A stretch of 64,000 nt of DNA from Sneathia vaginalis (GTDB lineage Bacteria > Fusobacteriota > Fusobacteriia > Fusobacteriales > Leptotrichiaceae), in contig NZ_CP011280.1 of the NCBI RefSeq assembly GCF_000973085.1, forward strand, positions 1,107,287-1,171,286, given 5' to 3'. This document shows positions 1,823 to 53,442 of the stretch, piece by piece. The stretch's first letter is position 1. Each line of letters opens with the position of its first letter. Made by a program: the position numbers and the translations under genes. The notes below the pieces were generated by a model. It worked only from the letters and a program-made list of their open reading frames with translations. It had not been told where the DNA came from and made no database searches.

Positions 1823-1875
1823 GTGGTTAAGAAATAAACTTTTATTTATTTCCAAACCACTTTTTTTTTTTTTTT
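1823..1875 (+). terminator. Intrinsic terminator after the rep-like gene; its T15 tract is also in the next promoter region
   Basis: Arms GTGGTT...AACCAC plus an inner 8-bp GAAATAAA/TTTATTTC stem (2x2 internal loop between them) end at 1860. Fifteen consecutive T residues follow at 1861-1875. The T-run is immediately followed by AGCTAAAATATAC, a likely -10 region for the downstream surface-protein gene. Confidence 0.8.
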
Positions 1876-1938: not shown

Positions 1939-3537
1939 ATGAAAAAGACATTATTACTAACTAGCTTAGTTGCATCAATGGTTGCAATAGCTGGAACAAC
2001 TGGATCAGTTGAAGCATATAACGAAAATGAAGCTACATTTGTAAAAGGTGCAAAACCAACTTTCGTAGCAAAGAAAACAGGAGTTAAAACAGAAGTTAAA
2101 GTAGAAGGAACAGGATTTAGCTTTGGTGGAGAATTTAAAGCCGAAGATTTAGAATTAGGTAAAGTTACAAAAGCAAATTACTTAAATCATTCAAGTGTAT
2201 GGGCTAAATATGAATTACCTGAATTAAAAGGAGTTAAATCATATGTTAAAGCAAGTGTTAGTCCTAAGTTTGATGAACAATTAAAGACATATGATTTAGC
2301 AGGATTACAAGCAAAATTATCTAATGCACAATCTGAACTTGCTGAAGCAGAAGCTAATTTTGACAATGTTGCAGATACTGAAGATAATAATTTAATTCAA
2401 GATGCATTTAATAAAGTTAGTACTGCAAGAAAAAATGTGAAAAATCTTGAAAGTGAAATACAAAATGCTAATAATTTAAAAACAATACCAGCTTATATAG
2501 ATAAAGGAAGTGCAGAATTAGAAGGACAAGTAAGTTATAAATATAATGAATTTACATTTGGTCTAAATTCAAAGACTAACTTCCCATTGAGTAATGAAGA
2601 ATATACATATGATGGATCAAAAACTCATAAGTCATCTGTTAAAGATTATGGAAAATTAGTTAAATCAACTCACAAACTATTCGTTGAAAGCGAAGAAGGT
2701 AAAGACGTATTCGTTAAAGGATTAAAAGACGTAAAAGCAAACGTTGAAATTAAGCATAACTACGCTAAAACAGTTACAAAAGCTGGAGATAGAGTAGACT
2801 ATGTTTCAGGTGAAGTATCAGCAAAATATGATGCTGTAAAAGATCTTGAACTTGAAGGTAAAGTTGCATTTAAGAAGAATATATCTGCTGAAAAGATTGG
2901 AGACTATGAAGTTTTAGGAACCAAACTATTTAAAGAATCACCAGCTAGATACATACACTCATATGAATTAAAAGGAACATACACAGGTGTTAAACACTTA
3001 ACATTATCTGCAAAACCTTTTGTTGCTCATGTAAATCTTTATAAAACAGTTACAGCTAACAAATTACAAAGATCTGACGTTGCTTTATACGGTATAGAAC
3101 TTGGTGCAGAATACAAGATGTTAAATGACAAATTAACATTAACAGGTAAATCATTACTTGCAGGTAAACACGGTAAAACAATAAATGAAGCAGCAATAGC
3201 TGATGCTGACAAATTAGTTAAAATAAATGCAGGTGTATTTGTATTTGATACAAATGCTAAATATGACTATAGCGTAACAGATAAATTCACAGTAAGTCCT
3301 GAAGCTAATGCTAACTTAAAATTAGATGTATTTAAGTTAGGAAATTCTTTAGTTACTTTACCAGAATTAACACTAACACCAAAAGTATCAGCTGAATACA
3401 AACCAACTGACACATTAACATTAAAAGGTAGCGTAGAAGCACCAGTTAAATTTGGAGTAAATGCAATAAGTAAAAAGTTTGAATACAAACAAACACAACT
3501 TAAGACAAGCTTAAACTTAAAATATGAATGGAAATAG
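1939..3537 (+). CDS. Secreted, probably outer-membrane beta-barrel protein with an inserted coiled coil
   Basis: The 532-residue product starts with a Sec signal peptide (MKKTLLLTSLVASM..., predicted cleavage after VEA, about residue 26). Most of the rest shows alternating hydrophobic/polar strands typical of transmembrane beta-barrels (for example LTLSAKPFVAHVNLY, TDKFTVSPEANANLKLDV). It ends in KTSLNLKYEWK, an aromatic-containing last strand. Between about residues 118 and 180 lies a very different Ala/Glu/Leu-rich stretch (LQAKLSNAQSELAEAEANF, a turn near 144-150, then STARKNVKNLESEIQNANN). It looks like an antiparallel coiled-coil hairpin inserted into the barrel, probably surface-exposed. 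The RBS AAAAAGGAG precedes the ATG. I do not recognise a named family; a porin or adhesin-like outer membrane protein is inferred. It is monocistronic, bounded by terminators. Confidence 0.7.
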   Translation: MKKTLLLTSLVASMVAIAGTTGSVEAYNENEATFVKGAKPTFVAKKTGVKTEVKVEGTGFSFGGEFKAEDLELGKVTKANYLNHSSVWAKYELPELKGVKSYVKASVSPKFDEQLKTYDLAGLQAKLSNAQSELAEAEANFDNVADTEDNNLIQDAFNKVSTARKNVKNLESEIQNANNLKTIPAYIDKGSAELEGQVSYKYNEFTFGLNSKTNFPLSNEEYTYDGSKTHKSSVKDYGKLVKSTHKLFVESEEGKDVFVKGLKDVKANVEIKHNYAKTVTKAGDRVDYVSGEVSAKYDAVKDLELEGKVAFKKNISAEKIGDYEVLGTKLFKESPARYIHSYELKGTYTGVKHLTLSAKPFVAHVNLYKTVTANKLQRSDVALYGIELGAEYKMLNDKLTLTGKSLLAGKHGKTINEAAIADADKLVKINAGVFVFDTNAKYDYSVTDKFTVSPEANANLKLDVFKLGNSLVTLPELTLTPKVSAEYKPTDTLTLKGSVEAPVKFGVNAISKKFEYKQTQLKTSLNLKYEWK

Positions 3538-50808: not shown

Positions 50809-50834
50809 AAAAAAAAAAAAAAAAAAAAAAAAAA
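50809..50834. repeat. 26-bp homopolymeric A tract
   Basis: Twenty-six consecutive A residues on the plus strand, followed by further A-rich sequence. It lies between the adhesin terminator and the hrcA -35, so it could serve as an extended U-tract for one and an UP-like element for the other. Such a long tract is expected to vary in length. Confidence 0.85.
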
Positions 50835-50877: not shown

Positions 50878-52854
50878 CTACTTATGGATAAGCTTTCTAA
50901 CTACTTCTTTTAATTCATTTATTTCTTTTCTCATTTCCTTATTTTCATCTTTTAATTGTTCTATAACCTTATCCTTATTATTTACACTACCAAGCATTAC
51001 TCCAGCTCCTATACCAAAGGCAAGATTTCCCTTACTATTAACTGCTCCACTTAATTTGTATGTGAAGTTTTGCTTGTCATTTGTTCCACTAAGTCCTACT
51101 GCTACTGAATGAGATCCTCCATAGTATCCATATGATGCAGCTAAATTAAACTTTCTATCTCCACTTACTTGTGGTAAGTTTGCCATTGCCACAGCACTTG
51201 ATACTCCACTTAAAGCTAAATCTGTTTTTTCATTAAGTTTAGCTACTTTTTCATCTACATATGCCTTATCAGCCTTATTTTCCTTAATAGTTTTTAAGTC
51301 ATTAATTACAACAACACTATCTCCATTTTCACTAGTTGATGATGCTGGTGTTGTATCTGAGCTTGTTGTATTACCATCACCTAATGAACTTTTAATATTA
51401 GAAAGTTTATGTGGTTCTTTGGCTTTTATGATAACTTCATCAACTTTACCTTCATATTCCTTATTATTTTTTTTATAATAGTATTTCTTACCATACTTAT
51501 ATAAACTTTCACCTTTTGTAGTAGCATATTCAAATGGTGTAGAATTATCTACATAAGTCTTCAATTCTTTCAATTGTGCAACATTGACAGCATCTGTGTC
51601 ATAATAACCTGCAGCAACATTTGTTATTTGTCTTGTTCCATATCTAGGATCACCTATTGACACTACACCTAAATTTGCTTTCCATACTCTATCTTTAAAC
51701 ATCGCATTAAATGCTTCTTTCGCTTTTTCTCTACCTTCTTTTAAAGCTATTTCTCTTATTTTTTCTTGTGTAATTCCCTTATATTTTCCATCTATAGCAC
51801 TATATGGTCTATATCCATCTTTTTCACTAGCTTCACCTGCTTTAGAACTAGAACCAAGTGCAACACTATGTTCTCCAAAAACTTCAGCACCATATCCTAA
51901 TGCTGTCCCTTCTTCAGCAATTACTTTAGAATTACTTCCTAATGCAGTAGACCAATTACCATATGACATTGCATTAGCACCTATTGATGTAGAGTTTTCT
52001 CCATAACTTCTCGCATTATATCCTAAAGCAACTGCTAATTTATTTACAGCAACTGCACGAGGTCCAACAGCTGTTGCTGATCGCCCTTTTGCTCTTGCAT
52101 AAAAACCAATTGCAACATTTCCATGACTATTAGAATTTTCTACTTCTGCAAGATAACCCATAACAACACTATTTTCAGACTTTTCTGCTTTATTACTTTC
52201 TCCCAATATGGTATTATAATCTGAATATCTATATAAAGATGAAGTTGCAATATCTTTTTTTATCTCCTCATCTTTTTTATTTTTTTTAGATATTACTTTC
52301 TTTATTACATCTCTATTATAATAGCCATCTGAATCAAAAGCTTTATACAGTATGTCATCATCTTCTGTAAGTTTTCTTTCTTTTACATTTTTAATAATAT
52401 TATTTATTATTTCAAAATCGTATTTTGCAGCTTCGTTAGGACCTAAAGTTCTTTCTATACTTTTTAATATTTCTGCATCAGTTTCTTTTATTTCATTTTT
52501 TTCTGGTTTTTTCCCATCAGGTGTTTTATCATTTTTATTATATTTTTTATTTTCATTAGCTTTAACTATATCCAAAACTTTTTTATATTTCTTACCTAAT
52601 TCTTTTGAAATCTCTTTCTTTATTTCAGCCTCACTTTTATCCTTATTAGCTATTGCAATATCTAAAAACTCATCATTTACTTCGTTATTTCTCCCACCAA
52701 TAACATTATCGTAACCATTTATCTTATTATCTATACTTGGTTTTAGAATTATATTACTTGCTCCATCTATAGTTACATTGCCATCATTTTTATCACTATA
52801 CCCAACACTTGCTAACATTGTTAATGCAGCACAAATTAAAATAGATTTTTTCAT
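50878..52854 (-). CDS. Trimeric autotransporter adhesin (YadA-like)
   Basis: From ATG 52854 this is a 658-residue adhesin. A signal peptide (MKKSILICAALTMLASVGYS) is followed by one head-like strand (YDNVIGGRNNEVN). A Lys/Glu-rich, mostly helical insert of about 150 residues comes next, then a regular YadA head of 14-15-residue repeats (NVAIGFYARAKG, TAVGPRAVAVN, ALGYNARSYGE, SIGANAMSYGN, TALGSNSKVIAE; about 225-340). A neck RQITNVAAGYYDTDAVNVAQL, a short stalk and the four-strand anchor (about 557-623) follow. Unusually it does not end at the anchor: about 35 residues of heptad-patterned coiled coil follow (VIEQLKDENKEMRKEINEL onward). A GTG at 52863 is in frame but too near the ribosome binding site. 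The upstream region carries a T16 tract. Confidence 0.93.
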   Translation of the reverse strand: MKKSILICAALTMLASVGYSDKNDGNVTIDGASNIILKPSIDNKINGYDNVIGGRNNEVNDEFLDIAIANKDKSEAEIKKEISKELGKKYKKVLDIVKANENKKYNKNDKTPDGKKPEKNEIKETDAEILKSIERTLGPNEAAKYDFEIINNIIKNVKERKLTEDDDILYKAFDSDGYYNRDVIKKVISKKNKKDEEIKKDIATSSLYRYSDYNTILGESNKAEKSENSVVMGYLAEVENSNSHGNVAIGFYARAKGRSATAVGPRAVAVNKLAVALGYNARSYGENSTSIGANAMSYGNWSTALGSNSKVIAEEGTALGYGAEVFGEHSVALGSSSKAGEASEKDGYRPYSAIDGKYKGITQEKIREIALKEGREKAKEAFNAMFKDRVWKANLGVVSIGDPRYGTRQITNVAAGYYDTDAVNVAQLKELKTYVDNSTPFEYATTKGESLYKYGKKYYYKKNNKEYEGKVDEVIIKAKEPHKLSNIKSSLGDGNTTSSDTTPASSTSENGDSVVVINDLKTIKENKADKAYVDEKVAKLNEKTDLALSGVSSAVAMANLPQVSGDRKFNLAASYGYYGGSHSVAVGLSGTNDKQNFTYKLSGAVNSKGNLAFGIGAGVMLGSVNNKDKVIEQLKDENKEMRKEINELKEVVRKLIHK

Positions 52855-52891
52855 CTTTCCCACTTCTTCCTTTATTATTGTTTGGTTATCA

Positions 52892-52922
52892 GTTATATTT
52901 TACATCAAAAAAAAAAAAAAAA
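52892..52922 (-). promoter_or_regulatory. Adhesin promoter region with a T16 homopolymer
   Basis: On the minus strand sixteen T residues (plus-strand A at 52907-52922) run to GATG and then TAAAATATAAC, which holds overlapping -10 candidates (TAAAAT, TATAAC). The homopolymer occupies the -35/spacer position. The same layout precedes the beta-barrel gene at 1939. Phase variation by slippage is plausible. Confidence 0.5.
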
Positions 52923-53031
52923 GGAACATTTTTTTAAATACTTTGTTTATTTCTTAACCTCTTTTTTTCTATTCTTTGTCTTCATTGAATTTGTTCGCCT
53001 TGGTTCATAATCGTTTTTTAACTAAATAAAA

Positions 53032-53065
53032 AAGCTCCAAAGTTTTTTTCTTCACTTTAGAGCTT
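53032..53065 (-). terminator. Intrinsic terminator of the dnaG-rpoD-ridA transcript
   Basis: Minus-strand AAGCTCTAAAGT / ACTTTGGAGCTT (one T-G pair, 10-nt loop), followed by TTTTTATTTA. Confidence 0.85.
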
Positions 53066-53073
53066 GTTTTTCT

Positions 53074-53442
53074 CTATCTATGTGCAATTACTTCAATTTC
53101 TACTAATGCTCCTTTAGGCAAGTCCTTAACTGCAAATGCTGATCTTGCAGGATAAGGTTCATTAAAGTATGTCATATATATTTCATTAACTGGTACAAAA
53201 TCATGAATATCAGATAAAAGAACTGTTGTTTTAATTACATTATCCATAGTTAAATTTTCTTTAGCTAAGATATTCTTGATGTTTTCTAATATTCTCTTTG
53301 TTTGTGAACTAAGGTCCAATTCCAATTCATTAGTTTCTGGATCTAGTCCTATTTGACCTGAAATATATACATAATCATCTACTACTCTATATGCTGAATA
53401 TGGTCCTACAGCCTTTGGAATTAAATTGCTCATAATTTTCAC
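53074..53442 (-). CDS. ridA: RidA-family enamine/imine deaminase
   Basis: A 122-residue protein of the Rid/YjgF family, which hydrolyses reactive enamines formed by pyridoxal enzymes. It has AVGPYSAYRVVDDYVYISGQ, GLDPETNEL, the catalytic Arg in PARSAFAVKDLPKGALVEIE and the following glutamates. It is trimeric in known members. It starts right after the rpoD stop, so it is probably co-transcribed with dnaG and rpoD. Confidence 0.93.
   Translation of the reverse strand: MKIMSNLIPKAVGPYSAYRVVDDYVYISGQIGLDPETNELELDLSSQTKRILENIKNILAKENLTMDNVIKTTVLLSDIHDFVPVNEIYMTYFNEPYPARSAFAVKDLPKGALVEIEVIAHR

What the first reader, a model, noticed from the sequence alone, without database searches (positions are those of the whole stretch)
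52892..52922. T16 homopolymer in the adhesin promoter: likely phase-variable expression
Seen: sixteen T on the minus strand end four bases before TAAAATATAAC, covering the -35/spacer region of the YadA-like gene. Established: slippage in promoter homopolymers switches surface proteins in several pathogens (fim in Bordetella, nadA-type tracts in Neisseria). Inference: adhesin expression varies between cells by changes in tract length.
Basis: partly seen in the sequence, partly recalled or inferred. Interest (0 to 1): 0.55.

Follow-up and report, generated by a model that had tools for sequence, protein, structure and literature searches.

The report
Slippage-prone poly-T surface-protein promoters
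A run of sixteen T in front of an adhesin gene is one copy of a repeated promoter design, found before about a dozen surface-protein genes of this probable vaginal bacterium, that looks built to change gene output when the run gains or loses a base; no strain or read data were available to show that it does.

Summary
In detail: T16 lies on the minus strand at 52907-52922, four bases 5' of TAAAATATAAC, before a YadA-type adhesin. It is not an isolated run. The genome has 20 T runs of 11 or more. Eleven share one module: GTTAARAAATAARC, 17-22 bp, T13-T19, 3-4 bp, TANAAT, then a surface-protein gene. All 9 exact copies of the box in the genome precede such a run. Two paralogous promoters are identical over 25 + 60 flanking bases but read T13 and T18. 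Box-to--10 distance is 43-45 in 8 paralogs without a pure run of 13 or more T, and 37-43 in the 11 tract copies. A second set has G8-G11 between -35-like and -10-like hexamers before adhesin and other secreted genes. Best explanation: slippage changes the spacing between a distal promoter element and the -10, tuning surface-protein expression, as in H. pylori sabA and N. meningitidis nadA. Variation between strains or reads, and expression, could not be tested; the genome is probably a 454 assembly, so exact lengths are uncertain. New variant of a known kind.

The parts
52907..52922 (-). T16 homopolymer, spacer and -35 position of the adhesin promoter
52945..52958 (-). Conserved distal box GTTAAGAAATAAAC (GTTAARAAATAARC), 22 bp 5' of the tract
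   Evidence: 9 exact copies genome-wide, 9 of 9 before a T tract
52897..52902 (-). Predicted -10 hexamer TAAAAT (TANAAT in all 11 module copies)
   Evidence: sequence comparison; start site not mapped
50878..52863 (-). YadA-type trimeric autotransporter gene (661 aa from GTG, or 658 aa from ATG at 52854)
   Evidence: PF05658, PF05662, PF03895 over cut-off
53020..53068 (-). Terminator-like hairpin of the upstream gene, separate from the T16
   Evidence: fold -15.2 kcal/mol, z -3.58; the consensus scan did not list it
1826..1839 (+). Second copy of the box in the window
   Evidence: exact match
1861..1875 (+). T15 tract of the second module in the window, followed by AGC and TAAAAT
1939..3537 (+). 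Surface-protein gene (532 aa, start MKKTLLLTSLVASM) behind the second module; multi-copy family
   Evidence: no Pfam hit

Best explanation
The T16 is the adjustable part of a repeated promoter module. A conserved distal element (GTTAARAAATAARC, centred near -60 of the predicted start) and a -10 hexamer (TANAAT) are held apart by a fixed 24-26 bp (20 in one copy) plus a pure T run that takes the place of the -35 and spacer. Replication slippage adds or removes T, changing the distance and helical face between the distal element (activator site or UP element) and the polymerase at the -10, and so the amount of surface protein made. Shown: the module, its recurrence, its genes, and length differences between near-identical copies in one assembly. 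Inferred: slippage in living cells, the effect on transcription, and what binds the box.
For: 20 T runs of 11 or more in 1.33 Mb; 11 of 20 in one module with box and TANAAT before surface-protein genes, a twelfth with TANAAT only. Exact box 9 times in the genome, 9 of 9 before a tract. Paralog promoters 85083 and 882219: 0 of 25 and 0 of 60 flank mismatches, T13 against T18. Fixed part 24-26 bp in 10 of 11 copies while T varies 13-19. Box-to--10 43-45 in 8 paralogs without a pure run of 13 or more, 37-43 in 11 tract copies. The box-tract unit is also in the other species of the genus. Poly-G spacer promoters at adhesin genes in the same genome and in a related genus. In H. pylori sabA a promoter T-tract was shown to act this way (PMC4081817, passages and section 11).
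Against: No reads and no second isolate of the species were available. The published genome of the likely species is 454-sequenced, which measures long runs poorly (recalled). In the sister species the promoter of the closest gene has T9-C-T8, not a pure run, and no evident box. MutS and MutL are present. The difference in spacing variance is not significant (p 0.16), and paralogs are not independent. 6 of 20 T runs are not before surface-protein genes.
Confidence: 0.68

Rival explanations
1. The tract is a fixed structural promoter element (stiff T-tract or UP-like DNA replacing the -35) whose length hardly matters; its repeats are copies of one duplicated promoter.
For: Several copies are recent duplicates. 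The promoters lack a -35, so the T-tract itself may be what polymerase uses; T tracts of any length of this order would fill the -35 place.
Against: The same module stands before unrelated gene families, YadA type and the MKKTLLL type. Older copies have interrupted or no tracts at a narrow spacing, so a pure tract is not required for the arrangement.
Confidence: 0.2
2. The long T runs are neutral expansions by slippage in AT-rich intergenic DNA, for instance at terminators, with no selected role.
For: Some T runs follow hairpins, such as T26 at 50809-50834, or have no ORF of 100 aa or more within 400 bp. Several relatives have long T runs too (27 of 40 genomes with at least one T13).
Against: 11 of 20 share the same position between the same box and -10, and the T16 has no hairpin before it.
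Confidence: 0.07
3. The run is mainly a sequencing or assembly artefact of 454 data.
For: 454 assembly reported for this species; G001 draft contigs break in poly-A/T.
Against: The distribution is bimodal, with a gap from 9 to 15 in the window; G001, a separate assembly, also carries long runs and the box-tract start. Errors could scatter lengths by a few bases but not create tracts at one promoter position.
Confidence: 0.05

Closest known systems
Helicobacter pylori sabA promoter T-tract (rheostat; PMC4081817, passages and section 11 read)
   Same: Pure T run of similar length (T5-T22 in strains, per the paper) in the promoter of an adhesin, with an upstream element whose alignment to the core promoter depends on tract length.
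   Different: There the tract is adjacent to a -35 and single-gene; here it replaces the -35/spacer, has a conserved box, and recurs before about a dozen genes. Variation and expression are shown there, not here.
Neisseria meningitidis nadA promoter repeat (NadR/IHF; PMC2791445, passages read)
   Same: Variable repeat between a distal operator and the core promoter of an adhesin; spacing is the variable.
   Different: TAAA repeats further upstream, a known repressor and IHF; here a mononucleotide run and an unknown box partner.
Homopolymer in the -35/-10 spacer (Neisseria porA/opc, Bordetella fim; recalled)
   Same: Slippage changes promoter geometry of surface genes; the poly-G promoters of this genome look like this class.
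   Different: The T16 promoter has no recognisable -35.
YadA-type trimeric autotransporter adhesins
   Same: Head, stalk and anchor domains.
   Different: Nothing unusual noted in the protein.

Membership tests
sabA-type promoter T-tract | Long pure T run in the promoter of an adhesin gene | tested here: met
sabA-type promoter T-tract | Tract next to, and upstream of, a -35 element | tested here: not met
   No -35/-10 pair found; the tract ends 4 bp from the -10
sabA-type promoter T-tract | Tract length varies between clones or strains | not testable with these tools
   No reads or second isolates; paralogs in one genome vary T13-T19
sabA-type promoter T-tract | Expression depends on tract length | not testable with these tools
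   Needs reporter or RNA data
nadA-type variable spacing of a distal element | Distal element at a fixed offset on the far side of the repeat | tested here: met
   Box 17-22 bp 5' of the tract in 11 copies
nadA-type variable spacing of a distal element | A regulator binds the distal element | not testable with these tools
   No binding data
Homopolymer in the -35/-10 spacer (porA/fim type) | Recognisable -35 and -10 on either side of the run | tested here: not met
   0 pairs in 52820-53120; met instead by 11 of 13 G runs of 8 or more elsewhere in the genome, with lenient hexamers
YadA-type trimeric autotransporter (gene product) | Head repeats, stalk and membrane anchor | tested here: met
   PF05658, PF05662, PF03895 over cut-off

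The most novel reading that the evidence does not exclude
The bacterium runs a two-part stochastic surface programme: one shared trans-acting factor (or polymerase contact) reads a common box at about a dozen adhesin and outer-surface promoters, and each gene's private T tract sets whether that gene can answer, while a second set of adhesins is switched by poly-G spacers; each cell would show its own surface combination, which global regulation can still turn up or down together.
Probability: 0.35. Interest if true: 0.78.

Novelty: new variant of a known kind. Interest (0 to 1): 0.6.

Why it matters
If the window is Sneathia vaginalis, as it seems, this would give a poorly understood pregnancy-associated bacterium a ready explanation for variable adherence and immune escape, and a clear test in reads that already exist. 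Searches of the held open-access library for Sneathia with phase variation, homopolymer, phase variable or slipped strand, Streptobacillus with phase variation, and Fusobacterium with homopolymeric promoter phase variation listed no paper that by title and abstract describes this; two Sneathia genome papers have no occurrence of 'phase' or 'homopolymer'.

Tried and rejected
Terminator reading: rejected for the T16, because no hairpin directly precedes it and the upstream gene has its own hairpin. Repair deficiency as cause: MutS and MutL domains are in 24 of 24 genomes searched, this one included. Finding the module elsewhere: outside the genus, one strict box-tract match (G031) among the 38 other genomes, reported with the eight T that the pattern asks for and probably chance; 0 in genome contigs and viral contigs, where this genome's own and near records may be left out; protein scans gave no confirmed relative. 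G001 as a second tract sample: its 9 T runs of 13 or more all lie within about 50 bases of a contig end, so full lengths cannot be read. Contig starts C21-C30 of G001 read N and were not pursued. A variance test of spacing was not significant. The automatic box search picked a wrong upstream match for genes 64662, 69368, 85083 and 1095895; these were re-measured with a box chosen by eye in register. Gene 799515 (box with 1 mismatch, T9, no TANAAT) and the T20 promoter 1095895 (distance 46, weak box) were left out of the spacing comparison.

Full report
Observation. The minus strand carries T16 at 52907-52922, then GATG and TAAAATATAAC. In the window A runs stop at 9 and resume at 16 and 26, and T runs stop at 8 and resume at 15; Markov models of order 1-6 expect 0.0006-0.003 A runs of 16 or more in 64 kb. 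The gene, 50878-52863, is a trimeric autotransporter with YadA head, stalk and anchor. Upstream lies a gene with its own terminator-like hairpin (53020-53068), so the T run is not a terminator tail.

Genome. The window is part of a 1,330,224-bp genome, with one further species of its genus among the 40 genomes searched. I take it to be Sneathia vaginalis SN35 (CP011280); the size match is recalled and comes from no call. The published genome of that species was sequenced by Roche 454, with an initial scaffold of 1,339,284 bases (PMC3535699, passages).

A repeated module. The genome has 20 T runs of 11 or more, 19 of them 13 or more. I fetched the surroundings of all 20. Eleven share GTTAARAAATAARC (up to 2 mismatches), 17-22 bp, T13-T19, 3-4 bp and TANAAT: tracts at genome 16837 (T15), 62915 (T16), 67568 (T19), 83266 (T17), 85008 (T13), 878853 (T17), 882282 (T18), 1100867 (T18), 1109147 (T15), 1160193 (T16, the one reported) and 1205353 (T17). 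A twelfth, T20 at 1095834 before a YadA-anchor gene, has TANAAT 5 bp on but no good box. T14 at 1021780 (YadA gene) and T12 at 76944 (196-aa protein with a signal-peptide-like start) lack the module. The other six are: T26 before hrcA (name recalled), T17 directly 5' of TTGACA of an enzyme-like gene, T18 about 300 bp from a gene that I take for ribosomal protein L10 (recalled), T26 at 198253, T20 at 259255 and T19 at 964434. Conversely, the box occurs exactly 9 times in the genome and 9 of 9 are 5' of a tract; with one mismatch there are 10 more, of which 3 (47064, 799570, 987556) stand before paralogs of the second gene family, and the reversed control pattern gives 5 in all. The box was derived from these promoters, so its presence there is by construction; the absence of exact copies elsewhere is the result.

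Genes. With YadA domains: 16902, 1095895, 1160149, 1205257, 1021697, and the gene after 878853, 83% identical to the window adhesin over residues 393-661. Seven others belong to a multi-copy family with the start MKKTLLLTSLVASM or a relative, represented in the window by 1939-3537; the three members scanned have no Pfam hit.

Tract length against flanks. In the recently duplicated copies the flanks are nearly frozen and the tract is not: 85083 and 882219 have 0 of 25 and 0 of 60 mismatches with T13 and T18; 62993 and 83345 differ by 2 and 2 bases, with T16 and T17; 67649 has T19 with 1-2 right-flank mismatches to these copies, but its left flank is changed next to the tract, 12 of 25. The fixed part (box to tract plus tract to -10) is 24-26 bp in 10 of 11 copies and 20 in 67649. 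In eight paralogs without a pure run of 13 or more, box-to--10 is 43-45 (46969, 49538, 57878, 58690, 61233, 64662, 69368, 987461; some boxes have 3-4 mismatches and 46969 has a second candidate at 31); tract copies are 37-43. The two sets differ in rank (p 0.0005), the variances do not differ significantly (p 0.16), and relatedness makes both only descriptive. My inference: 43-45 is the ancestral working distance, and tract alleles move at or below it by up to more than half a helical turn.

Second class. The genome has 13 G runs of 8 or more. Eleven have a -35-like and a -10-like hexamer (at least 4 of 6 each, best match chosen, so lenient) 15-20 bp apart around the run; I leave out 576604, which also passes that lenient test but lies within a proline/glutamate-rich coding stretch, and 1023995, which does not pass at 15-20 bp. 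Twelve, all but 576604, are followed by ORFs with signal-peptide-like starts by eye; of nine such proteins or parts scanned, five have YadA domains over cut-off. In G014, which by size I take to be Streptobacillus moniliformis (recalled), there are 40 G runs of 8 or more; of 12 that I looked at (11 stretches of my choice), 10 have TTGACA before and a TATAAT-like hexamer after the run. So homopolymer promoters at surface genes look like a habit of the family, and the T module is, by strict pattern, confined to this genus among 40 genomes apart from one probable chance match.

Mechanism. Shown: sequence, recurrence, gene class, length differences in one assembly. Inferred: slippage and an effect on transcription. 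The predicted start near 52890 puts the box centre near -60, where UP elements and class I activator sites lie (recalled). Without a -35, output should depend on the distal contact, and the tract sets its distance and face. In H. pylori sabA, T-tract length was shown to change alignment of UP-like elements with the core promoter and to vary in vivo (PMC4081817, passages and section 11); in nadA, repeat number changes operator spacing (PMC2791445, passages).

Against. No reads or further isolates could be searched; 454 lengths are uncertain; the sister-species promoter of the gene most like this one has T9-C-T8, GGTGG, TATAATATAAC and no evident box, although another YadA-type gene of that species has the box and a long T run on one contig end; mismatch repair is present; T runs also occur at terminators and elsewhere.

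In print. The two Sneathia genome papers were read only by term search: 'phase' and 'homopolymer' have 0 occurrences in each; the Leptotrichiaceae comparison (PMC5093955) likewise. Subscription papers and preprints are not held.

Noticed in passing
window 50809-50834: T26 (minus strand) between the adhesin's terminator hairpin and the TTGACA of the promoter before hrcA-grpE-dnaK-dnaJ (names recalled; inverted repeat TTAGCACT...AGTGCTAA present). This is the sabA-like position, just 5' of a -35, so heat-shock operon output might also vary.
   Followed up: partly
L065, L061, L039, L136, L078 and others (G000 1046788, 1015676, 876939, 884081, 985709): G9-G11 runs between -35-like and -10-like hexamers of YadA-type and other secreted-protein genes.
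   Followed up: partly
G014, 40 G runs of 8 or more; L142-L152: A related genus has many TTGACA-G8-13-TATAAT promoters before secreted-protein genes: 10 of the 12 runs looked at.
   Followed up: partly
L134, G000 576604: G9 inside a proline/glutamate-rich coding stretch, a candidate for translational phase variation.
   Followed up: no
L039, gene after the tract at G000 878853: Where the window adhesin's paralog should start, the codon reads ATA rather than ATG (listing of promoters).
   Followed up: no
G001 contig ends (L051-L059, L082-L112): All 9 T runs of 13 or more in this draft genome lie within about 50 bases of a contig end, so such tracts break draft assemblies and would be under-counted in them.
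   Followed up: yes
L037, G000 198253-198278: T26 flanked by TGGGTG and CGCCCA, which could pair as a stem with the T run in the loop, about 220 bp before a G10 promoter of a YadA-head gene.
   Followed up: no
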